From contig JAHFUP010000049.1 in the NCBI GenBank assembly GCA_023265025.1, positions 1-38,278 on the forward strand: a stretch of DNA of 38,278 nt. The letters run 5' to 3'. The stretch is from Acidimicrobiia bacterium (lineage in GTDB: Bacteria > Actinomycetota > Acidimicrobiia > Acidimicrobiales > AC-14). The notes beneath the pieces are model-generated. The model was not told the origin of the DNA and did no database searches. It saw only the letters and a program-made list of their open reading frames with translations. The first letter of the stretch is position 1. Every line of letters starts with the position of its first letter. Shown piece after piece: positions 15,762-24,641 of the stretch. The position numbers were made by a program, and so were the translations under genes.

Positions 15762-15944
15762 ATGAATAGTACGGAGTGGTTGAGCGTAGCGGGGGCGTGT
15801 CGTCGGCTGAAGGTGTCCCGGACGACACTCTTCCGCCTCATCGACCGGGGTGAGTTGCCGGCGTACCGGTTCGGCTGGATGATCCGGCTCCGGGCGGCCG
15901 ATGTCGAGGCCTTCCGGCGCAGCCGAGACGATCAACCCGGCTGA
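15762..15944 (+). CDS. Small HTH_17 DNA-binding protein (excisionase/BldC-like)
   Basis: 60 aa. A single MerR-type winged helix of the excisionase family: WLSVAGACRRLKVSRTTLFR, then LIDRGELPAYRFGWMIRLRA and a short helix with DVEAFRRS. Similar in size to BldC and to phage or plasmid excisionases, but no integrase, attachment site or phage gene is nearby, so a stand-alone chromosomal regulator is more likely. It is divergent from DUF3052, and its last 13 bases overlap the convergent ketosynthase gene. Confidence 0.8.
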   Translation: MNSTEWLSVAGACRRLKVSRTTLFRLIDRGELPAYRFGWMIRLRAADVEAFRRSRDDQPG

Positions 15945-17167
15945 TAGCTGCGCAGGAGCAGGGCGGCGTTTTGTCCGCCGAAGCCTGCGGCGTTGACCAT
16001 GACCGAGTGCAGGACCATGGGGCGGGGCGCGCCCACCACGTGGTCGAAGCGGCAGTCGGGGTCGACCGTCCCGGCTGAGAGGCCCCGCGTCGCCGGCAGC
16101 AGCTGGTGGTGCACGGCCAGCGCGGCCACCAGCACGCCGAACGCGCCGGCCGCGCCCAGGCCGTGACCCAGGGACGCCTTGGGCGCGGTCACCGCCAGCG
16201 ACGGAGCCGGGCCGAACACCGTCCGCAACGCCCGGGCCTCGGACAGGTCGCCGGCCACGGTGGCCGTGGCGTGGGCCACGAGCGCGTCGACGTCGCCGGG
16301 CCCGGCCCCGGCGTCGGCCAGCGCCCGGGACATCGCCTGGGCCGCCCCCCGGCCCTCCGGGTGCGGCGCAGCCAGGTGGTAGGCGTCGCCGGCGCTGCCT
16401 CCGCCGGCGACCACCGCCAGGACCCGCGCACCCCGAGCCGTGGCGTGATCGAGTAGCTCCAGCACGAAGACCGCGGCACCCTCCGACGCCACCATCCCGG
16501 TCCGGCGCACGCCGTAGGGCCGGCACGCCGAGGCGGGGTCGTCGCCGGCGGCGGCGAGGGCGCCGGCGTTGGCCAGGGAACCGAGGATCAGCGGCGACAG
16601 GGCCCCGTCGGTGGCGCCGGCCAGGACGACCTCGGCGTCGCCGCGCTGCAGGACCCGCAGCCCGTCAATCACCGCCTGGACGCCGGCCGCGCACGCGCCG
16701 ACGCCGCCCAGGACCGGCCCCGTCGCGCCGAGGACGATCGACGGCTGGCACGCGGCCATGTTCGGCCCGTAGACCGGCGTGAAAAGCGGGCTGACCCGTG
16801 CCGGCCGCGCCGCTGCCGCGCCGGCCGCGGCCTCGGCCTCCAGCAGTCCACCGGCGCCGGTGTGGATCACGATCCCGAGCCCGTCGCCGGCGTAGCCCTC
16901 CAGGCCGGCGTCGGCCATGGCCATCGTCGACGCGACCACCGAGAACTGGCTGAACCGGCCCATCCGCCGGGCGGTGTTGCGGTCCATGTGGTCGCCGGCG
17001 TCGAACCACCCCGCCGGCCCCACGACACCGCAGCCCGCCCGCCGGAGGCCCTCGGGGGCCGCCTCGAGGCCCGACCGGCCGGCGAGCAGCCCATCCCACG
17101 TGCCGGCGGCGTCGCCGAGCGGTGTCACGGCCCCGACGCCCGTGATCGCAATCGCGGCGTCCGTCAC
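15932..17167 (-). CDS. Beta-ketoacyl-ACP synthase (KAS II/FabF-like)
   Basis: 411 aa. Condensing enzyme extending an acyl chain by two carbons from malonyl-ACP. The catalytic Cys159 sits in GGVGACAAGVQAV, His299 in VAHATATVAGD (the family has HGTGT; here both Gly positions of the loop are Ala), and Lys330 and His335 in APKASLGHGLGAAG. FabF-type DAYHLAAPHPEG and GFGGQN are also present. With Cys, His and His intact it should be active, unlike a chain-length factor. The KS starts with a GTG and is divergent from the regulator at 17233, which heads a ligase-ACP operon, so the KS and ACP likely work together. Confidence 0.9.
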   Translation of the reverse strand: MTDAAIAITGVGAVTPLGDAAGTWDGLLAGRSGLEAAPEGLRRAGCGVVGPAGWFDAGDHMDRNTARRMGRFSQFSVVASTMAMADAGLEGYAGDGLGIVIHTGAGGLLEAEAAAGAAAARPARVSPLFTPVYGPNMAACQPSIVLGATGPVLGGVGACAAGVQAVIDGLRVLQRGDAEVVLAGATDGALSPLILGSLANAGALAAAGDDPASACRPYGVRRTGMVASEGAAVFVLELLDHATARGARVLAVVAGGGSAGDAYHLAAPHPEGRGAAQAMSRALADAGAGPGDVDALVAHATATVAGDLSEARALRTVFGPAPSLAVTAPKASLGHGLGAAGAFGVLVAALAVHHQLLPATRGLSAGTVDPDCRFDHVVGAPRPMVLHSVMVNAAGFGGQNAALLLRSYQPG

Positions 17168-17218
17168 GGCGGCGCCGACGATATCAGCGTCCCTTGATGC
17201 CCTCGTTGGCCCCCGGTC

Positions 17219-17224
17219 TACAGT
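17219..17224 (+). promoter_or_regulatory. Candidate leaderless -10 for the ArsR-like regulator
   Basis: TACAGT, eight bases before the ATG at 17233. A TTGATG at 17194-17199 could be a -35 with a long 19-bp spacer. The element lies in the divergent gap between the ketosynthase and the regulator, so a repressor binding here would control both arms of the cluster. Confidence 0.4.
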
Positions 17225-17232
17225 TGGGCGCC

Positions 17233-17571
17233 ATGGTCAGCGCCGTGACACAGAAAGAAGCGGGTCGCCTCTCGGAGGACCTGGCGGTCATCGCCGAGCC
17301 CCACCGGCTGCTCATGCTCCGCCACCTGCGCCGGGGGCCCCGCAGCGCCGGCTACCTGGCCAAGGCCCTCGACCTGCCCCAGCCCCTGGCCGCCTACCAC
17401 CTGTCGGTCCTGCTGGGCGCCGGCCTCATCACCAAGCGCCGCAACGGTCGGTTCACCTGCTACGCCGCCGACCACAACCGGGTCAAGGAGCTGCACCGCA
17501 CCATGGGGCGCCTGGTAGGCGCCTCCGGGGCGGTGGCCGAGGCCCAGGCCGCGGCCGACGACCCGTGCTGA
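17233..17571 (+). CDS. ArsR-like winged-helix regulator
   Basis: 112 aa from ATG 17233 (leaderless promoter eight bases upstream). Earlier starts at 17194 (TTG) and 17197 (ATG) have no ribosome site. A single winged helix: AVIAEPHRLLMLRHLRRG, the recognition region LDLPQPLAAYHLSVLLGAG and the wing LITKRRNGRFTCYAA. The metal-binding CxC of ArsR/SmtB is absent, so it probably answers to something else. It overlaps the AMP-ligase start by seven bases, so it is in the same transcript and likely controls this acyl-processing cluster. Confidence 0.8.
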   Translation: MVSAVTQKEAGRLSEDLAVIAEPHRLLMLRHLRRGPRSAGYLAKALDLPQPLAAYHLSVLLGAGLITKRRNGRFTCYAADHNRVKELHRTMGRLVGASGAVAEAQAAADDPC

Positions 17572-19160
17572 TCGCGGCGACCGAGCCGGGCAGGCTGGTC
17601 GCGGAACCGTCACCCCACGGCCTGGTGCGCTGCTACCCCGATCGGGTGCGCACGATCGTGGAGGCGCTGGACCGGGCCGTGCGCCTGTTCCCCGACGTCG
17701 TCGCCCTGGAGACGCCCGAGGGCGACGTCACCTACGCCGAGCTCGCCGAGCTCGTCGAGGGTGCGACCGAGCGCCTGGCCGAGGAGGGCCTGGTCACGGG
17801 CGATCGCCTGGCTGTCTGCATGCGCAACGGCCTCGACATCGTGGTCGCCATCTGGGCCGCGGCCCGGTCGGGCCTGGTCTTCGTCGGGCTGTCGACCAAG
17901 CTGGCGCCCACCCAGTGGGCCTACATGCTCGCCCACTCGGGCGCATCCCTGGCCCTCGGCCACCCCGAGTACGGCGACGGCCTCCGGGCCGCGGCCGCCG
18001 ACGCCGGCATGGCCCCCGACCGGGTGCGGGAGGTCGGCGACCACCTCACTGGCCGCCGGCGACCCTGGCGGGGCGACGCCATCGCCTTCCCCGACGAGGA
18101 CGCCACCTACGGCGTGATCTACACGTCCGGCACCACCGGGCGGCCCAAGGCCAGCCGCCTCGTCCACCGGGGCACCATGCATTCGGCCATCGCCTACGTC
18201 CGCACCCTCGCCCTCACCGCCGGCGACCGCACCGCCATCGTGTTCCCGCTGTACTACGTGACCGGCCACGTCGCCCAGGTCACGCCGATGATGCTGGTGG
18301 GGGGCACGTCGGTCACCGTCGCTGACGTCGTCCCCCGCGAGTTCGTCCGGCTCATCGGTCAGCGCCGTATCACCTATCTGATGGTCGTCCCCTCGATCTG
18401 GCCCCTGTTGCTGCGCGACCCCGGCTTTACATGGCCGGAGCTGGCCCACGTCGAGATCGGCGCGTTCGGGGGGTCACCGGTGCCCATCTCCGCCATCGCC
18501 GCCCTCCGCCGGCGGATGCCCCAACTGCGGCTGTACGACGCCTACGGCCTGACCGAGACCCACTCGCCGGCCACCATCCTCCTCGACTCGGAGTTCCGCC
18601 GGAAGCCGGGCTCGGTGGGGCGGCCGCTGCCGTGCGCGGATGTCCGGGTGGTCGACAACGACGGTCACGACGTGGCCCCGGGCGAGGCAGGCGAGCTGTG
18701 GATCCGCGGCCCGATGGTCACCACGGGCTACTACGGCGACGAGGCGGCGACCGCCGCCGCGTTCACCGACGGCTGGCTGCACTCGGGCGACTACGCCCGG
18801 GTCGACGACGAGGGGTATGTCTTCATCCTCGACCGCAAGAAGGACATGATCATGCGGGGCGGCAACAAGGTGTACTCGGTCGAACTTGAGTACCTCCTCG
18901 TCAGCCATCCCGACATCGCCGAGGCGGCCGTGTTCGGGGTGCCCGACCGCCTGGCCTTCGAGTCGGTCGCCACCTACGTCGTGCCCGCCACCGGCCGCTC
19001 GGTCGACGCCAGCACCGTCCAGCACTGGGTGGCGCGCCACATGGCCGAGTTCGCCGTCCCCCGGCACGTCCGCATCGTGGACGTGATCCCCCGCAACCGC
19101 ACGGGCAAGATCGACAAGTTGGCACTGAGGGAGACCATGGAACTGGAGCTGCGTCGATGA
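17565..19160 (+). CDS. AMP-dependent acyl-CoA/ACP ligase
   Basis: 531 aa from a GTG at 17565. Adenylate-forming enzyme that activates a carboxylic acid as acyl-AMP and passes it to CoA or to the phosphopantetheine of a carrier protein. Motifs: A3 YTSGTTGRPKA (186-196), A5 YDAYGLTETHSP (324-335), A7/A8 HSGDYARVDDEGYVFILDRK (406-425) and the C-terminal A10 NRTGKIDK with Lys515. N-terminal residues 1-50 are a typical AMP-binding lead-in. The ATGA overlap with the ACP that follows suggests it loads that ACP. The acid used is not predictable from sequence. Confidence 0.9.
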   Translation: MLIAATEPGRLVAEPSPHGLVRCYPDRVRTIVEALDRAVRLFPDVVALETPEGDVTYAELAELVEGATERLAEEGLVTGDRLAVCMRNGLDIVVAIWAAARSGLVFVGLSTKLAPTQWAYMLAHSGASLALGHPEYGDGLRAAAADAGMAPDRVREVGDHLTGRRRPWRGDAIAFPDEDATYGVIYTSGTTGRPKASRLVHRGTMHSAIAYVRTLALTAGDRTAIVFPLYYVTGHVAQVTPMMLVGGTSVTVADVVPREFVRLIGQRRITYLMVVPSIWPLLLRDPGFTWPELAHVEIGAFGGSPVPISAIAALRRRMPQLRLYDAYGLTETHSPATILLDSEFRRKPGSVGRPLPCADVRVVDNDGHDVAPGEAGELWIRGPMVTTGYYGDEAATAAAFTDGWLHSGDYARVDDEGYVFILDRKKDMIMRGGNKVYSVELEYLLVSHPDIAEAAVFGVPDRLAFESVATYVVPATGRSVDASTVQHWVARHMAEFAVPRHVRIVDVIPRNRTGKIDKLALRETMELELRR

Positions 19161-19420
19161 GCGAGACGAACGCGACGGAGCCCCGGGTGCGGTCCGTCGT
19201 CGCCCTCCACCTCGACGTCGACCCCTCCCGCCTGCAGCCCGAGGCCCGCCTCGGCGAGGACCTGTGCGTCGACTCTCTCGCCGCCATCGACATGGCCATG
19301 GTGCTGGAGGACGAGTTCGACATCGCCCTGCCCGAGGAGGTCCTGGGCTGCGTCCGCACCTACGGCGACGTGGTGAGCCTGGTCGCCGAACGGGTCGAGC
19401 GCCGGATGCAGGAGGCCTGA
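19157..19420 (+). CDS. Acyl carrier protein
   Basis: 87 aa. Four-helix carrier with the phosphopantetheine Ser40 in EDLCVDSLAAIDM, where the family usually has GADSL; the change of Gly-Ala to Cys-Val in front of DSL is unusual. Helix II continues with AMVLEDEFDIALPEE, which is typical. It overlaps the ligase by four bases and is the last gene of the regulator-ligase-ACP operon. Distinct from the housekeeping AcpP by context: no fabD, fabG or fabH is nearby. Confidence 0.9.
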   Translation: MSETNATEPRVRSVVALHLDVDPSRLQPEARLGEDLCVDSLAAIDMAMVLEDEFDIALPEEVLGCVRTYGDVVSLVAERVERRMQEA

Positions 19421-19488: not shown

Positions 19489-20631
19489 CTACACCAGCGG
19501 GGTGTCGAGCTCCAGCCCCAGCAGCACCCGCCCGACTGTCTCCAGGCCGGGGAACGCCAGCACCACGTGCTGGCCGAGGGCGTGGACGTCACGGTGCCGG
19601 CGCTGGAGCGGGTGGTCGTCGAACAGGGCGGTGGTGCCGGCGGCCTCGAAGCACAGGTCGACCGCGGCCCGGGACGACGAGGCGGCGTTGACGACGGCCA
19701 GGCGGGCGATGGCCCGGTCGTCCATGCCGGCGCCGGCGCCGGCGGCCAGCATCCGGTCGAGCGACTCGACCAGGAAGGCCCGGGCCGACCGGGTCAGGGC
19801 TTCAGCCCGTGCCACCATCGACTGCACGACGTCGCGGTCGGCCAGCCGGCGGGCGCTGCGGTACGGCGTCTTGGTCTGGGCCAGCTCGACCACGTCGTCG
19901 ATGGCGCCCCGGGCGATGCCGAGGGCGACGGCGGCCAGCGGAGCGAAGAACAGCGGCATCGGCGGCGTCCGCCACATCGGGCCGGTCGCCCACGGTGCGA
20001 ACGCGAAGGCCATGGTGTGGGCGGCCGGTACCGGGAGGCTGTCGACCGCATAGTCGTGGCTGGCGGTGCCTCGCAGGCCCGAGGTGTGCCAGGTGTCGTG
20101 GATCATCATCGACGACCTCGGGAAGAGGGCCAGCCGGGGCTGGGGGCGGCCGTCGTCAGTGGTGAGGAGCTCGCCGGCGTCGTCGACGAGGAGGCAGGCG
20201 CCGGCCATCCAGTCCGAGTGCGAGCCGCCGCTGCCGAAGCCCCAGCGACCGGTGACCACCAGGTTGCCGTCGCCGTCGACCGTGGCCCGGCCGGCGGTGT
20301 TGAACGAGCCGCCGGTGAGGGTCGCCGGCGACGCAAAGATCTTCCTCGCGCCGGCCTCGGGCAGGAAGGCAGCCAGCGCGTTGGTGCCGACCGCCACCGC
20401 CGCGCACCAACCGGTCGCGCCGTCGGCCGCGGCGAGGGTGGCGATGGCGTCCATCACCTCCGCCGGCGTCGCCTCGGCGCCGCCCAGTTCGGTCGGGAGC
20501 CAGAGGGCCGGGATGCCACTGGCCCTGAGGTCGTCGACCAGGTGGACAGGAAGCCGGCCCGTCGCCTCGATGGCCGCCGACAGGGCGGCGACGGGCCCCG
20601 CCATCCGGCGGGCTGCGTCGACGGCGCTCAT
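19489..20631 (-). CDS. Group D flavin-dependent monooxygenase (acyl-CoA dehydrogenase fold)
   Basis: 380 aa. Resembles HsaA/DszC/SfnC-type enzymes: the acyl-CoA dehydrogenase fold using reduced flavin and oxygen to hydroxylate. Seen: LPTELGGAEATPAEVM (N-terminal helices), GRWGFGSGGSHSDWM (the flavin-region motif of this group), a middle domain with TSGLRGTASHDYAVDS, and the C-terminal QRRHRDVHALGQHVVLA. The catalytic Glu of true acyl-CoA dehydrogenases is not expected here. A separate flavin reductase would be needed and is not in the window. It overlaps the methyltransferase stop by four bases and is the last gene of the transporter operon. Confidence 0.8.
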   Translation of the reverse strand: MSAVDAARRMAGPVAALSAAIEATGRLPVHLVDDLRASGIPALWLPTELGGAEATPAEVMDAIATLAAADGATGWCAAVAVGTNALAAFLPEAGARKIFASPATLTGGSFNTAGRATVDGDGNLVVTGRWGFGSGGSHSDWMAGACLLVDDAGELLTTDDGRPQPRLALFPRSSMMIHDTWHTSGLRGTASHDYAVDSLPVPAAHTMAFAFAPWATGPMWRTPPMPLFFAPLAAVALGIARGAIDDVVELAQTKTPYRSARRLADRDVVQSMVARAEALTRSARAFLVESLDRMLAAGAGAGMDDRAIARLAVVNAASSSRAAVDLCFEAAGTTALFDDHPLQRRHRDVHALGQHVVLAFPGLETVGRVLLGLELDTPLV

Positions 20632-21371
20632 TTTGTCGCCACGAGCCGGCGTATCCGGTAGCTGACCTCGACCGGCGCCGACCGGACCCGGGCCTGCAGC
20701 AGCGCGACCGCGGCGGCCACTCGGTCGGGGCCGGCGCCGGGCGCGTAGAACGAGCGGACGACGCGCTCGGCGTCGTCTGGGCCGCGGACGGCCCGGCCGA
20801 ACAGGGCCGACTCGTCGCTGCGCAGCGTGAGCCCCGACGTCTCGAACCGGGCGGCCACCCCGGCGTCCAAACGTTCGGGGTACCCGATCCCGGCCTGGCC
20901 GAGCACACTGAGGATGGCCGCGAACGGAACGCTGCCGACGTCGCGGATCGGCACCGTCGCCACGAGCACCCCGCCCACCTGCAACACCCTGGCCACCTCG
21001 GCCAGCACGTCCTCGAGGGGCTTCACGAGCATGAGCGCCATCGACGCCACGACCGCCCCGGCGATGCCGGCGGCCAACGGCAGCGCCGTGGCCCCCGCCC
21101 GGGCGAGCAGGACGCCGCGCCCGCCGGCACAGGCCAGTTCGGCCGCCGAGAGATCGACGCCGACGACCCGCCGGCCGGGGAGCAGTCGGGCCAGGGGGGC
21201 GCTACCGCACGCCAGGTCCAGGACCGTCGTCGCCTCGGCGGGCACGGCGTCGACGACCCACTGGTACGGGGTCCGGCCCCGATGGTCGATGGTGTCGCCG
21301 AGCAGGTCCTCGGTGATGCCGGCGTGGGCCCGGTGGTAGTCGACCAGGTAGCCGGCCCAGCGGTCTGTCAC
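20628..21371 (-). CDS. Class I SAM-dependent methyltransferase
   Basis: 247 aa. Rossmann-fold methyltransferase of the Methyltransf_11/25 type: motif I VLDLACGSAPLARLLPG, followed by VVGVDLSAAELACAG (motif II), then ALPLAAGIAGAVVASMALM and LAEVARVLQVGGVLVATVP. Substrate unknown. It lies seven bases after the transporter ATPase and is coupled by ATGA to the monooxygenase, so it probably acts on a compound imported or produced by that pathway. Confidence 0.85.
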   Translation of the reverse strand: MTDRWAGYLVDYHRAHAGITEDLLGDTIDHRGRTPYQWVVDAVPAEATTVLDLACGSAPLARLLPGRRVVGVDLSAAELACAGGRGVLLARAGATALPLAAGIAGAVVASMALMLVKPLEDVLAEVARVLQVGGVLVATVPIRDVGSVPFAAILSVLGQAGIGYPERLDAGVAARFETSGLTLRSDESALFGRAVRGPDDAERVVRSFYAPGAGPDRVAAAVALLQARVRSAPVEVSYRIRRLVATK

Positions 21372-21378
21372 CGCGGCC

Positions 21379-22128
21379 TCATGCGTCGAGGACCCTGCTC
21401 AGCACGGCCGCTTTGAGCTCGACGAAGCGGGGGTCGGCCAGCGTGGCCCGGCCCCGCGGCGCCGGCAGGTCGACGGCCAGCTCCTCCACCACCTCGGCCG
21501 GCCGGTGGGACAGCCGCAGCAGCCGGTGTCCGAGCAGCAGGGCCTCCTCGACGTCGTGGGTGACCAGCAGCGTGGCCGTCCTCCGCTCGGCCAGCAGCCC
21601 GATGAGCCACTCCTGCATGCGCAGGCGGGTCTGGGCGTCGAGGGCGCCGAAGGGCTCGTCGAGGAGCAGCAGCGGCGGCCGGTTGGCGAGGACCTGGGCG
21701 ATGGCCGCCCGCTGGCGCATGCCGCCGGAGAGCTGGCGGGGGAGGAGGTGAGCGGACCCGCTCAGCCCGGTGGCGTCGAGCAGCTCATCGACGATCGTCT
21801 TGGCGTCCCGGTCGCCGAGGGCCCGGGGGCCCCACTCCAGGTTGGCCCGCAGCGACAGCCAGGGAAACAGCGTCGCCCCCTGGACGACCATGGGCCGGTC
21901 GGGCGACGGGCCGCGGACCGCCTCGCCGGCCACCTCCACCCGCCCCCGGTCGGGGGGCTCGAGGCCGGCGAGCACGCGCAGCAGCGTCGACTTCCCGCAC
22001 CCGCTGGGCCCCAGCACGGTGACCACCTCGCCGGCGGCGACCGACAGGTCGATCTGGCCGAGCACCGGAAGAGGTCCGTAGGCCTTGGCCACGCCGGCGG
22101 CGGCCAGTGCCGTTGTGTCGACGGCCAT
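21379..22128 (-). CDS. ABC transporter ATP-binding protein (SsuB/TauB/NitD type)
   Basis: 249 aa from ATG 22128, with GGTGA upstream. Walker [10 protein letters not shown] (40-48), Q-loop VVQGATLFPW, signature LSGGMRQRAA, Walker B LLLLDEPFGALD and H-loop LLVTHDVEEAL are all intact. This is the nitrate/sulfonate/taurine class of importer ATPases. It follows the permease with two bases between stop and start. A further in-frame start at 22146 exists but would overlap the permease more than usual. Confidence 0.95.
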   Translation of the reverse strand: MAVDTTALAAAGVAKAYGPLPVLGQIDLSVAAGEVVTVLGPSGCGKSTLLRVLAGLEPPDRGRVEVAGEAVRGPSPDRPMVVQGATLFPWLSLRANLEWGPRALGDRDAKTIVDELLDATGLSGSAHLLPRQLSGGMRQRAAIAQVLANRPPLLLLDEPFGALDAQTRLRMQEWLIGLLAERRTATLLVTHDVEEALLLGHRLLRLSHRPAEVVEELAVDLPAPRGRATLADPRFVELKAAVLSRVLDA

Positions 22129-22130
22129 GC

Positions 22131-23012
22131 TCACCCGTCGGCCCAACGGATGAAGGGCCGGGCGACCGCCCGCAGGAGTAGGTCGCCGGCGAAACCGATG
22201 ATGGCGAACGTGGCCATGCCGACCATGATCTGGTCCAGCCGGCTCACCTCCCGGGCCGCGAACATCATCGCCCCGAGACCGCGGCGGGAGCCGGTGAGCT
22301 CGGCGACGATCACGGTGGTCCAGCCCAGGGTGAGCCCGAGCCGGAGGCCCGTGACGATGCCGGGCAGCGCCGAGGGTAGGTAGACCCGCCCGGCCAGGTC
22401 GCGCGGGCGGGTGCCCAGCATGCGGGCCGTGTCGACCAGTTGGCGGGGCACGCGGGCGGTGCTGTCGGCCGTGGCCACGACAATGGGCGACACCGCACCG
22501 ATGAACACCAGGAACCGGGCCGCGCCGTCACCGAGGCCGAACCACACCAGGGCGACGGGCAGCCAGGCCGTGATCGGCACCGAGCGCAGGGCCTGGAAGA
22601 GAGGGTCGACGGCGGCGGCCATCCACCGCGACAGGCCCAGGCCCATGCCCAGCGGCACGCCGACGCCGACGGCGATGGCGTAGGCCACCAACCACCGGCC
22701 GGTGCTGGCCCGGATGTGCTCGAACGCGGCGCCCTTGAACGGCACCACGCCCGGGATCGGCGGCCGCTTGGGGGCGACGACGAAGTCGCGGGCGGTGCGG
22801 GCCAGGTCGGCCGGCGCCGGCAGGAACCGGTCCGACACCACGCCGGTGGCGCTGAGGACCGACCACAGGCCGATCAGGACGGCGGGAAGGGCCACCCCGA
22901 CGGCGAGCCGGCGCCAGCCGCTGAGCCGCCGGCGGGTGGCGATCTCGCTGCTGGGGCCCAGCACCTCGCCGAGGTCCAGGCCGGCGTCGCCCTCGGCCTC
23001 CCGGAGCGCCAT
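22131..23012 (-). CDS. ABC transporter permease (SsuC/TauC type)
   Basis: 293 aa. Six predicted membrane segments with the BPD_transp_1 coupling motif (ADSTARVPRQLVDTARMLG... then a conserved Gly-x-x-x-P region) and the LPSALPGIVTGLRLG helix. The N-terminal 30 residues are hydrophilic. It lies three bases after the binding-protein gene and two before the ATPase, so the three are an operon. The imported compound may be a sulfonate, thiamine precursor or similar. Confidence 0.93.
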   Translation of the reverse strand: MALREAEGDAGLDLGEVLGPSSEIATRRRLSGWRRLAVGVALPAVLIGLWSVLSATGVVSDRFLPAPADLARTARDFVVAPKRPPIPGVVPFKGAAFEHIRASTGRWLVAYAIAVGVGVPLGMGLGLSRWMAAAVDPLFQALRSVPITAWLPVALVWFGLGDGAARFLVFIGAVSPIVVATADSTARVPRQLVDTARMLGTRPRDLAGRVYLPSALPGIVTGLRLGLTLGWTTVIVAELTGSRRGLGAMMFAAREVSRLDQIMVGMATFAIIGFAGDLLLRAVARPFIRWADG

Positions 23013-23015
23013 GGG

Positions 23016-24053
23016 TCAGCTCTTGGGCTGGAAGTCCAGGAGCAGGAGGTCGTCGATCTTGGGCTTGGTGGTCAGCACGCCCTGGGCCAGCATCATCTCC
23101 GCTGCGCCCTCGAACTGGGCCTTGCGGGCGGCGTCGAACTTCCAGACCGCGCCGACGTTGTCGAGCACCGCCTTGTACACCGGCTCGGAGTACTCGAACT
23201 GCTCCACCAGCAACTTGCGCCACGGGTCGGGCGCGTTGACACCGTTCGGCGTCAAGTACTCGGCCGCATCGCGCTGCATCTTGGCCACCGCGGTGAGGAG
23301 GTCGGGGTCGTTCAGGTTCTTAGGGGCGGCCCACATGGCGGTGTTGATGTCGCCGGCGGGCGTGCCGTAGACCTCGTTGATCCGGACGCCGCGGCCCGAC
23401 ACCACGCTCTGCGTGCAGAGCGGCTCGGTGCCCATGTAGGCGTCGACGTCGCCCCGCTCGAGCGCGGCCGGCTGGTCGGCGAAGCCCAAAGGGATGGAGG
23501 TCACGTCGCGGTCGAGCTTGAGCCCCACCTTGTCGAGGGCGGCGGTCAGGGCGAGGACCTGGACGCCGGGCGGCGGCACCGCGACCTTCTTGCCCTTGAG
23601 GTCGGCCACGGTCTTGATGCCCCGGTCGGAGCGGGCGATGAGGCCGATCCCCTGGCGCGAGCACATGGTGATGACCTTGGCCCTGAACGTATTTGTGGTC
23701 GTGGCCTCGATCATGGTGTTGTAGTAACCCATGAGCCCGAAGTCGAGCTCGCCAGCGGCGAGGAGCCGGCTGATCTCGGCGGCGGCGGTGACGATCACCG
23801 GCTTGACGGTGAGGCCGGGCGGGGCGAACCGCTGCCACTCCAGCATCGACGAGGCGTGGTTCTTGGCGTAGACGGCGGTGGTGATGGTCTTGCCGCCGAA
23901 GTCCTTGACCGCGGCCTTCCCGGGGGCCGGCGTGGTCGTGGCCGTGGTGGCCGTGTCGTCGTCGCTCCCACAGGCGGCGAGCAGCGCGGCGGCCGCCGCG
24001 CCGCCGGCAGCCAGGCCCAGGAATCGCCGACGGCTCAGGTCTTCGTACGTCAT
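23016..24053 (-). CDS. ABC transporter substrate-binding lipoprotein (NitT/TauT type)
   Basis: 345 aa. Begins with a Tat-type signal (SRRRFLG) followed by a lipobox ending LAAC28, so it is probably exported folded and anchored to the membrane. The mature part is a NMT1/SsuA-like periplasmic-binding fold: AVYAKNHASSMLEWQRF, AAEISRLLAAGELDFGLMGY, TVADLKGKKVAVPPPG, AALERGDVDAYMGTEP. The ATG has a strong GGAGG six bases upstream. It is the first gene of the operon with permease, ATPase, methyltransferase and monooxygenase. Its ligand is unknown. Confidence 0.93.
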   Translation of the reverse strand: MTYEDLSRRRFLGLAAGGAAAAALLAACGSDDDTATTATTTPAPGKAAVKDFGGKTITTAVYAKNHASSMLEWQRFAPPGLTVKPVIVTAAAEISRLLAAGELDFGLMGYYNTMIEATTTNTFRAKVITMCSRQGIGLIARSDRGIKTVADLKGKKVAVPPPGVQVLALTAALDKVGLKLDRDVTSIPLGFADQPAALERGDVDAYMGTEPLCTQSVVSGRGVRINEVYGTPAGDINTAMWAAPKNLNDPDLLTAVAKMQRDAAEYLTPNGVNAPDPWRKLLVEQFEYSEPVYKAVLDNVGAVWKFDAARKAQFEGAAEMMLAQGVLTTKPKIDDLLLLDFQPKS

Positions 24054-24068
24054 GCAGCCCCTCCACGA

Positions 24069-24084
24069 ATCAACATAGGTTGAT
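24069..24084. promoter_or_regulatory. Candidate operator palindrome before the transporter operon
   Basis: ATCAAC (24069-24074), spacer ATAG, GTTGAT (24079-24084), a perfect 6-bp inverted repeat. It lies 15 bases upstream of the ABC binding-protein ATG and 53 bases before the divergent osmC start, in the AT-richer part of the gap, and could control one or both. Confidence 0.4.
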
Positions 24085-24137: not shown

Positions 24138-24641
24138 ATGGATCCTCGAGAGCTCCAGCGCCCGCTGAAGCAGGGGTACCGGGCCGACCCCGCCACCGCC
24201 CTGCTCACCCTCCGCGCCACTGCCAGCCAGCAGGAAAGCCCCATGGCGTGCTCGGTCGACATCGGCCGCGCCGTCTACGCAGCCCAGGCCCACGCCGGCG
24301 CCGGCGGGCCGGGCACCGCCCCGTGTTCGGGCGACCTCCTCCTCGGCGCCCTCGCCGCGTGCGCCCAAGTGACCTACCAGATGGTTGCCACCGCCATGGC
24401 TGTGCCGATTGCCTCGGTGCACGTCACCGCCGAGGGGGACCTCGATCTGCGGGGCACGCTGGGCATCGACACCGAGACGCCGGTGGGGTTCACGGCGGTC
24501 CGCTTGAGCTTCGGCGTGGCCGCACCGGAAGCCACTCCGGAGCAGCTGGCGTCGGTCCTCGACAAGACCGAGCGCTACTGCGTCGTGCTCCAGACCCTCA
24601 CCACCCCGCCGGTGATCAGCGTCGCGTCGTCGGGTTCGTGA
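24138..24641 (+). CDS. OsmC-family thiol peroxidase-like protein
   Basis: 167 aa. OsmC/Ohr-fold protein. The two redox cysteines expected for the fold are visible: Cys75 in LLGALAACAQVTYQ and Cys148 in DKTERYCVVLQTL. It reduces organic hydroperoxides in known members, with the cysteines forming the active dithiol. There is no MarR-like OhrR nearby. It is divergent from the transporter operon and coupled by GTGA to a small lipoprotein, so the pair is co-expressed. Confidence 0.88.
   Translation: MDPRELQRPLKQGYRADPATALLTLRATASQQESPMACSVDIGRAVYAAQAHAGAGGPGTAPCSGDLLLGALAACAQVTYQMVATAMAVPIASVHVTAEGDLDLRGTLGIDTETPVGFTAVRLSFGVAAPEATPEQLASVLDKTERYCVVLQTLTTPPVISVASSGS

What the first reader, a model, noticed from the sequence alone, without database searches (positions are those of the whole stretch)
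15932..19420. Ketosynthase - regulator - AMP ligase - ACP mini-cluster
A FabF-like ketosynthase with HATAT instead of HGTGT in its His loop is divergent from an ArsR-like gene, an adenylating ligase and an ACP whose active-site loop is CVDSL. No other fatty acid genes are near, so the four may make or activate a dedicated acyl product.
Basis: partly seen in the sequence, partly recalled or inferred. Interest (0 to 1): 0.55.

Follow-up and report, generated by a model that had tools for sequence, protein, structure and literature searches.

The report
Switch-controlled acid-loading and chain-extending gene set
A small group of actinobacteria carries a regulated gene set that probably takes up an unknown acid, loads it onto its own carrier protein and extends it with a reshaped enzyme, a possible new small-molecule pathway whose product is unknown.

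Summary
The four genes are real, intact and at the stated coordinates. All 3 held genomes of the genus keep them (one KS is cut by a contig end). The older unit is ArsR-ligase-ACP: the same triad, same order, occurs without the KS in another genus of the family (G006) and in two genomes of another class (G606, G780). The KS beside it is seen only in this genus.

The locus is probably larger than reported. The KS-ArsR promoter region carries ATCA-N8-TGAT; the only other match in the window (0.10 expected in all) lies before SsuA of the neighbouring SsuA-SsuC-SsuB-methyltransferase-flavoenzyme operon. Both sites are kept in 3 of 3 genus genomes, and G006 has one before its ArsR. The ArsR may control all nine genes.

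The KS keeps its catalytic residues but lost three pocket Phe (F202L, F229M, F398A); it scores far below the FabF cut-off, and its place in the tree is unresolved.

Best reading: an ArsR-switched importer, ACP-loading ligase and dedicated KS that extend an imported acid with housekeeping malonyl-ACP. Substrate, product, ACP (versus CoA) loading and ArsR binding are inferred. New variant of a known kind.

The parts
15932..17167 (-). FabF-like ketosynthase (KS); catalytic Cys, two His and Lys kept, HATAT loop, altered acyl pocket
   Evidence: PF00109/PF02801, FabF models below cut-off; 85% in G001, 86% over the part present in G002; residue map
17168..17232 (.). promoter region between divergent KS and ArsR; -10-like TATCGT (KS side) and TACAGT (ArsR side)
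   Evidence: read by eye from the sequences of three genomes
17183..17198 (+). candidate ArsR operator ATCAGCGTCCCTTGAT
   Evidence: ATCAANNNNCGCTGAT (other strand): one exact match per genome in 3 of 3 genomes, always here; ATCAGCNNNNNTTGAT: 0.01 expected in window, also at the ArsR promoter of G006
17233..17571 (+). ArsR-family regulator without a familiar metal-site motif
   Evidence: PF01022/PF12840, NF033788 above cut-off; 92-94% in genus, 62% G006, 44-47% G606/G780
17565..19160 (+). class I adenylate-forming ligase (PF00501 + PF13193); if the GTG is the start, it overlaps arsR by 7 nt in 4 of 4 genomes looked at
   Evidence: orthologues; reciprocal best hit from G606; overlap string
19157..19420 (+). 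acyl carrier protein, DSL serine intact, 4-nt overlap with ligase
   Evidence: PF00550 33.3 bits, over cut-off; follows the ligase in 6 genomes
19489..20631 (-). acyl-CoA-dehydrogenase-fold enzyme, flavin-monooxygenase-like; not found in G002
   Evidence: PF08028; NF045629 (HsaA) 143.5 bits, below cut-off 450
20628..21371 (-). class I SAM methyltransferase, fast-evolving
   Evidence: PF08241; 58-64% in genus
21379..22125 (-). ABC importer ATPase (SsuB/TauB-like)
22131..23012 (-). ABC importer permease (SsuC-like; named from its neighbours, not scanned)
   Evidence: ORF; 82-83% in genus
23016..24053 (-). ABC importer substrate-binding protein (SsuA/NMT1-like)
   Evidence: PF09084/PF13379; TIGR01728 102.6 bits, below cut-off 163.5; start codon read
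24069..24084 (-). second candidate ArsR operator, 15 nt before the SsuA start codon, next to a -10-like TACGGT (by eye)
   Evidence: ATCAN8TGAT: two sites in window, 0.10 expected, 0 of 100 shuffles reach two; kept in G001 and G002

Best explanation
An ArsR-switched 'take up, load and extend' module. When the ArsR repressor lets go of its sites, three transcripts come on: the SsuA-SsuC-SsuB importer operon with a methyltransferase and a flavin monooxygenase; ArsR-ligase-ACP; and the KS. The ligase adenylates an imported carboxylic acid and hands it to the phosphopantetheine arm of its own ACP. The KS, whose pocket has lost three Phe rings, takes that unusual acyl group and performs one or a few condensations with malonyl-ACP from the housekeeping FAS. 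Methylation and hydroxylation are optional finishing steps. SHOWN: gene content, intact catalytic residues, conservation, selection, the wider ArsR-ligase-ACP unit, and the shared palindrome at both promoters. INFERRED: that ArsR binds it, import of the substrate, loading onto ACP rather than CoA, condensation by the KS, and the product.
For: ArsR-ligase-ACP in the same order in 6 genomes of two classes. ATCA-N8-TGAT at exactly two places in each of the window, G001 and G002 stretches, both promoters, and once in the G006 stretch, at the ArsR promoter, amid different neighbours. Importer theme elsewhere: in G498, G707 and G779 a sodium:solute symporter gene stands beside the ligase (Pfam for G498; 76% and 57% relatives in the other two). 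A more distant relative, G781, has KS, ligase, ACP, an acyltransferase and an SDR reductase in a row. KS keeps C163, H303, K335, H340, F400 (numbering and roles recalled) while F202L, F229M, F398A and G198I occur in no other of the 11 rows mapped except G001. pN/pS: KS 0.18-0.22, ligase 0.18-0.22, ArsR 0.07-0.11, ACP 0.25-0.31.
Against: G498 and G707 keep the ligase without a recognisable ACP but with a CoA-binding-domain gene, so the ligase family may use CoA. The KS is missing beside the triad in G006, G606 and G780. No reductase, dehydratase or thioesterase gene was found among the 11 window genes scanned. The flavoenzyme is not in G002 and the SsuABC operon is not beside the triad in G006. 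In G781 the acyltransferase and reductase frames match only part of their domains. The first operator site was known when the N8 pattern was tested, so only the second site is an independent surprise. Spacer 6 gives as many matches as spacer 8, but all seven lie inside genes.
Confidence: 0.4

Rival explanations
1. Acid salvage: the ligase is an acyl-ACP synthetase that loads scavenged ordinary or branched fatty acids onto ACP, and the KS only feeds them into membrane lipid synthesis.
For: Best ligase model is a fatty acyl-CoA synthetase (NF006182, 379.5 bits, below its cut-off 663); nearest solved structures are fatty-acyl- and feruloyl-CoA synthetases; importer nearby; FAS genes on C30.
Against: Altered KS pocket and a methyltransferase/monooxygenase operon with the same operator-like site fit a dedicated product better; SsuABC-type importers for long fatty acids are not known to me (recalled).
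Confidence: 0.2
2. Catabolic CoA ligase: the ArsR regulon imports and oxidises an aromatic or organosulfur acid; the ligase makes a CoA thioester, and ACP and KS are side players.
For: SsuABC-like importer plus HsaA/SfnB-like enzyme; feruloyl-CoA synthetase among nearest solved structures; ligase without ACP but with a CoA-binding gene in G498/G707.
Against: An ACP follows the ligase in all 6 triad genomes; a KS is not expected in catabolism; no ring-cleavage gene among the 11 window genes scanned.
Confidence: 0.17
3. Spare FabF: the KS is a divergent FabF that substitutes for or protects against inhibition of the housekeeping FabF and shares the promoter region by chance.
For: H-A-T-x-T is shared with KSs that stand beside TetR-type regulators on Streptomyces, Kitasatospora and Pseudarthrobacter plasmids; KS linked to the triad only in this genus.
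Against: Kept beside the triad in 3 of 3 genus genomes with its promoter overlapping the conserved palindrome; the two of those plasmid KSs that I mapped (L083, L085) keep F202, F229 and F398, which ours has lost; the careful tree does not unite all H-A-T-x-T rows.
Confidence: 0.12
4. KS as acyltransferase: the ACP-bound acyl group is moved to another acceptor and no carbon-carbon bond is formed.
For: No reductive partner gene among those scanned; weak similarity to the AmcF model, described as an acyltransferase subunit (152.5 bits against cut-off 325).
Against: Full catalytic set and FabF-like sequence over the whole length.
Confidence: 0.08

Closest known systems
FabF / KAS II (TIGR03150, NF005589)
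   Same: Full-length alignment; C163, H303, K335, H340 and F400 kept
   Different: 336.8 bits against cut-off 493.75 and 333.6 against 387; HATAT; G198I, F202L, F229M, T270A, F398A; the genome has another FabF on C30, 41% identical
ArsR-ligase-ACP triads of G006, G606 and G780
   Same: Same gene order; against the window ligase 58-77%, ArsR 44-62%, ACP 30-47%
   Different: No KS beside them; next gene is a peptidase M19 (G006), an HpcH/HpaI lyase (G606) or an opposite-strand FMN dehydrogenase (G780)
KS-ligase-ACP-acyltransferase-reductase row in G781 (L096)
   Same: Ligase relative (41%), KS and ACP adjacent and in one direction
   Different: Adds acyltransferase and SDR frames (partial domain matches); HGTST loop; KS 39% identical, no closer than housekeeping FabFs; no ArsR hit in the stretch
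Streptomyces plasmid loci with KS, AMP-binding protein and ACP (L098, L099)
   Same: Adenylating enzyme, ACP and FabF-like KS near each other
   Different: Also a chain-length-factor gene (L098) or a MaoC-type gene (L099) and more; ours has one KS and an ArsR
Actinomycete KSs with H-A-T-x-T beside TetR-type regulators (L083, L084, L085, L104)
   Same: Ala at position 304, regulator next door
   Different: No ligase or ACP annotated in the stretches shown; shared descent with our KS not supported

Membership tests
FabF equivalog (TIGR03150) | score over curated cut-off 493.75 | tested here: not met
   336.8 bits
Catalytic ketosynthase | Cys163, His303, Lys335, His340 | tested here: met
   alignment to E. 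coli FabF; residue roles recalled
Housekeeping FabF of the order | one clade with the order's FabFs | tested here: inconclusive
   held together (28 rows), lnL 39.3 lower, p-AU 0.066; trees
Clade of actinomycete KSs with H-A-T-x-T | shared descent with them | tested here: inconclusive
   SH-aLRT 80 in the quick tree, with one non-HAT row inside; careful tree puts it nearest to the T. roseum FabF, and 0% of 200 bootstrap trees have all 14 HAT rows on one side of a branch
Minimal type II PKS | KS-alpha with a chain-length-factor partner | tested here: not met
   one KS here; PF00109 rings at three places in the genome: this one, the C30 FabF, and a 22.4-bit partial hit in a gene I read as a thiolase
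Fatty acyl-AMP ligase (FAAL) | FAAL-specific insertion and C-terminal domain type (recalled) | tested here: inconclusive
   only PF00501 and PF13193 in Pfam; no FAAL among the 25 NCBIfam models shown of 105 matched; insertion not examined
ACP-loading ligase | transfers acyl-AMP to holo-ACP | not testable with these tools
   only adjacency to an ACP gene
ArsR/SmtB family | NF033788 over cut-off 55 | tested here: met
   62.5 bits
ArsR metal sensor | metal-site motif (ELCVCDL type or alpha-5 D/H set, recalled) | tested here: not met
   not seen by eye in the alignment of six
Acyl carrier protein | D-S-L site and PF00550 over cut-off | tested here: met
SsuA sulfonate-binding protein | TIGR01728 over 163.5 | tested here: not met
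   102.6 bits: related, substrate open

The most novel reading that the evidence does not exclude
ArsR-ligase-ACP is an undescribed portable 'acid-loading cassette' of actinobacteria that senses a small acid, charges it onto its own ACP and captures different downstream enzymes (KS here, M19 peptidase in G006, HpcH/HpaI lyase in G606). In this genus it has grown into a nine-gene regulon with its own importer that turns an environmental acid into an unknown extended, methylated and hydroxylated product.
Probability: 0.3. Interest if true: 0.7.

Novelty: new variant of a known kind. Interest (0 to 1): 0.5.

Why it matters
It would be a minimal, self-regulated chain-extension module with its own uptake system in Acidimicrobiales, a group from which I recall little small-molecule chemistry. 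The operator logic gives a direct handle: the inducer of the ArsR is likely to be the substrate or the product, so finding one would point to the other. The changing partner genes of the triad are natural experiments on what an ACP-linked ligase can be coupled to.

Tried and rejected
Considered and rejected. (1) Four genes as one ancient unit: the KS is not beside the triad in G006, G606 or G780, and none of them has a KS closer than 41-43% (G780 is only 59% complete). (2) KS as the genome's only FabF: C30 holds another, next to an ACP. (3) HATAT as unique: 14 of 81 tree rows have H-A-T-x-T. (4) KS linked to the ligase in G498/G707: those KSs lie about 10 kb away, next to a long gene I read by eye as ribonucleotide reductase, not in a run with the ligase. 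(5) KS tree as a clean answer: quick and careful trees differ and the KS sits on a long branch. (6) ATCA-N6-TGAT as a second motif: as frequent as N8 in the four sequences (2, 2, 2, 1 each), but its seven matches lie inside genes: five in the ligase, one in SsuA, one in the Ppk frame.

Led nowhere: one search used an operator pattern one base too long (its matches are not the site); plasmid searches gave best rows of 45.6% (KS) and 37.6% (ligase) identity; seven literature searches, of which I saw only the listings with the first lines of abstracts, showed nothing on this gene set. 'Not described' rests on these alone. In one search the SsuA values involving G002 are wrong (my slice began before the start codon and held a stop) and are not used. 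Structure prediction was not run.
Full report
Observation. The window is the whole contig C181 of a 5.45 Mb, 185-contig genome. Its two held genus relatives appear, by equal contig lengths, to be an Acidimicrobiia MAG (JAHFUR010000017.1, G001) and Acidimicrobiales AVDCRST_MAG10 (CADCTB010000067.1, G002). The KS matches FabF models over its full length but scores 336.8 bits against a cut-off of 493.75.

Conservation. In G001 the neighbourhood is syntenic: SsuA-SsuC-SsuB-MT-flavoenzyme, ACP, ligase, ArsR, KS, then genes I read by eye as DedA-like, TetR and transketolase. G002 has the KS (cut by the contig end), ArsR, ligase, ACP, MT and SsuBCA but no flavoenzyme. Identities are KS 85-86%, ArsR 92-94%, ligase 87-89%, ACP 83-87%; pN/pS 0.18-0.22, 0.07-0.11, 0.18-0.22 and 0.25-0.31. 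The methyltransferase (0.46-0.57) and flavoenzyme (0.41) are less constrained.

Distribution. In 395 genomes drawn from the class, 2 (G000, G001) have a ligase hit at E <= 1e-100. The same draw gave 179 genomes with a KS hit at E <= 1e-62, and in the part of that list shown nothing but G001 exceeds 43% identity. Only 3-4 candidates per genome were scored in these two searches, and the draw evidently lacked G002 and G006. A family search of 10 genomes found a ligase hit in 7: the three genus members, G006 at 77%, and three at 37-38%. In 396 genomes drawn from the phylum it rang in 4 at E <= 1e-92 (own genome, G606, G498, G707), and in the 66 held genomes of G606's class in 7. G606's ligase finds the window ligase as its best hit in our genome (59%; next 35%).

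The older unit. ArsR-ligase-ACP in the same order occurs in G006, G606 and G780 as well as in the three genus genomes. The best KS elsewhere in these genomes is 41% (G006), 43% (G606) and 42% (G780, only 59% complete). What follows the ACP differs: a peptidase M19 in G006, an HpcH/HpaI lyase in G606, an opposite-strand FMN dehydrogenase in G780. G498, G707 and G779 show no ACP by tblastn beside the ligase and have a sodium:solute symporter gene there instead; G778 shows neither on its short contig. The more distant G781 has KS, ligase, ACP, acyltransferase and SDR reductase frames in a row, the last two with partial domain matches.

The switch. Between KS and ArsR lies ATCAGCGTCCCTTGAT. On the KS strand, ATCAANNNNCGCTGAT has exactly one exact match in each of the three genus genomes, always here; one mismatch adds 5, 3 and 1 other places, and the backward control, also with one mismatch allowed, gives 2, 1 and 1. 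The ArsR promoter of G006, with different neighbours, carries ATCAGCCGCGGTTGAT. ATCA-N8-TGAT gives two matches in the window: this one, known beforehand, and ATCAACATAGGTTGAT at 24069, 15 nt before the SsuA start codon (0.10 expected, 0 of 100 shuffles reach two). G001 and G002 have the same two sites and no other match in the stretches held; resampling gives 0.02-0.07 expected per stretch. Spacer 6 is as frequent but all its matches lie inside genes. By eye, the site directly follows a -10-like hexamer at SsuA and overlaps one at the KS. One repressor for the transcription units on either side is the simplest reading. That it is this ArsR is inference; one search found no paper to cite for such a site.

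The enzymes. The KS keeps C163, H303, K335, H340 and F400 (E. coli numbering and roles recalled). The window and G001 share I108A, T161G, G198I, F202L, F229M, T270A, G304A, S306A and F398A. Of these, G198I, F202L, F229M and F398A are seen in no other of the 11 rows mapped, whereas A or G at 108 and A at 304 are. Loss of three rings suggests a bulkier or differently shaped acyl group; this is inference from sequence. In trees of 81 KSs the pair sits on a long branch: the quick tree puts it by actinomycete H-A-T-x-T KSs (SH-aLRT 80), the careful tree nearest to the Thermomicrobium roseum FabF. One clade with the order's FabFs is not rejected at 0.05 (p-AU 0.066). The ligase has PF00501 and PF13193 and resembles fatty-acyl and feruloyl-CoA synthetases. 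The ArsR shows no familiar metal motif. A Cys in the beta-wing and one near the C-terminus are present in 6 of 6 ArsRs, but in the four of this family the last Cys codon lies in the overlap with the ligase start, so its conservation may be forced. The genome has seven phosphopantetheine-domain places.

Interpretation. I take the locus as an ArsR-switched module that imports an acid, charges it onto a dedicated ACP and extends it with a dedicated KS, at 0.4. The main doubts are CoA versus ACP as acceptor, whether the KS condenses, and whether the ArsR binds both sites. It would work like a very small type II chain-extension system; it fails the tests for the FabF equivalog and for a KS-alpha/chain-length-factor pair, so I file it as a variant, not a member.

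Noticed in passing
window 15762-15944 (+): 60-aa HTH_17 (excisionase-like) protein convergent with the KS and overlapping its stop; a 63% identical copy lies at the same place in G001 (L034 13398-13550).
   Followed up: partly
window 19489-21371 (-): Methyltransferase and flavoenzyme have higher pN/pS than the other genes compared; the flavoenzyme is not found in G002.
   Followed up: partly
L096 7247-12036 (G781): KS-ligase-ACP-acyltransferase-reductase row that looks like a small extension system of its own.
   Followed up: partly
L087 6549-10544 (G498), L088 (G707): Sodium:solute symporter, ligase and a CoA-binding-domain gene in a row.
   Followed up: partly
L083, L084, L085, L104: FabF-like KSs with H-A-T-x-T next to TetR-type regulators on Streptomyces, Kitasatospora and Pseudarthrobacter plasmids, with no ligase or ACP annotated in the stretches shown.
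   Followed up: partly
G000:C150:27832-33681: Three phosphopantetheine-binding domains in long frames and an adenylating-domain hit: probably an NRPS-type locus in the same genome.
   Followed up: no
L086 upstream of ArsR (G606): GTCTA-N8-TAGAC inverted repeat with the same 8-nt spacing as the window's site but other letters, read by eye; nothing similar seen in G780.
   Followed up: no
window 24138-24641 (+): OsmC-like gene divergent from SsuA, close to the second palindrome; not found in the G001 stretch held, and the G002 contig ends there.
   Followed up: partly
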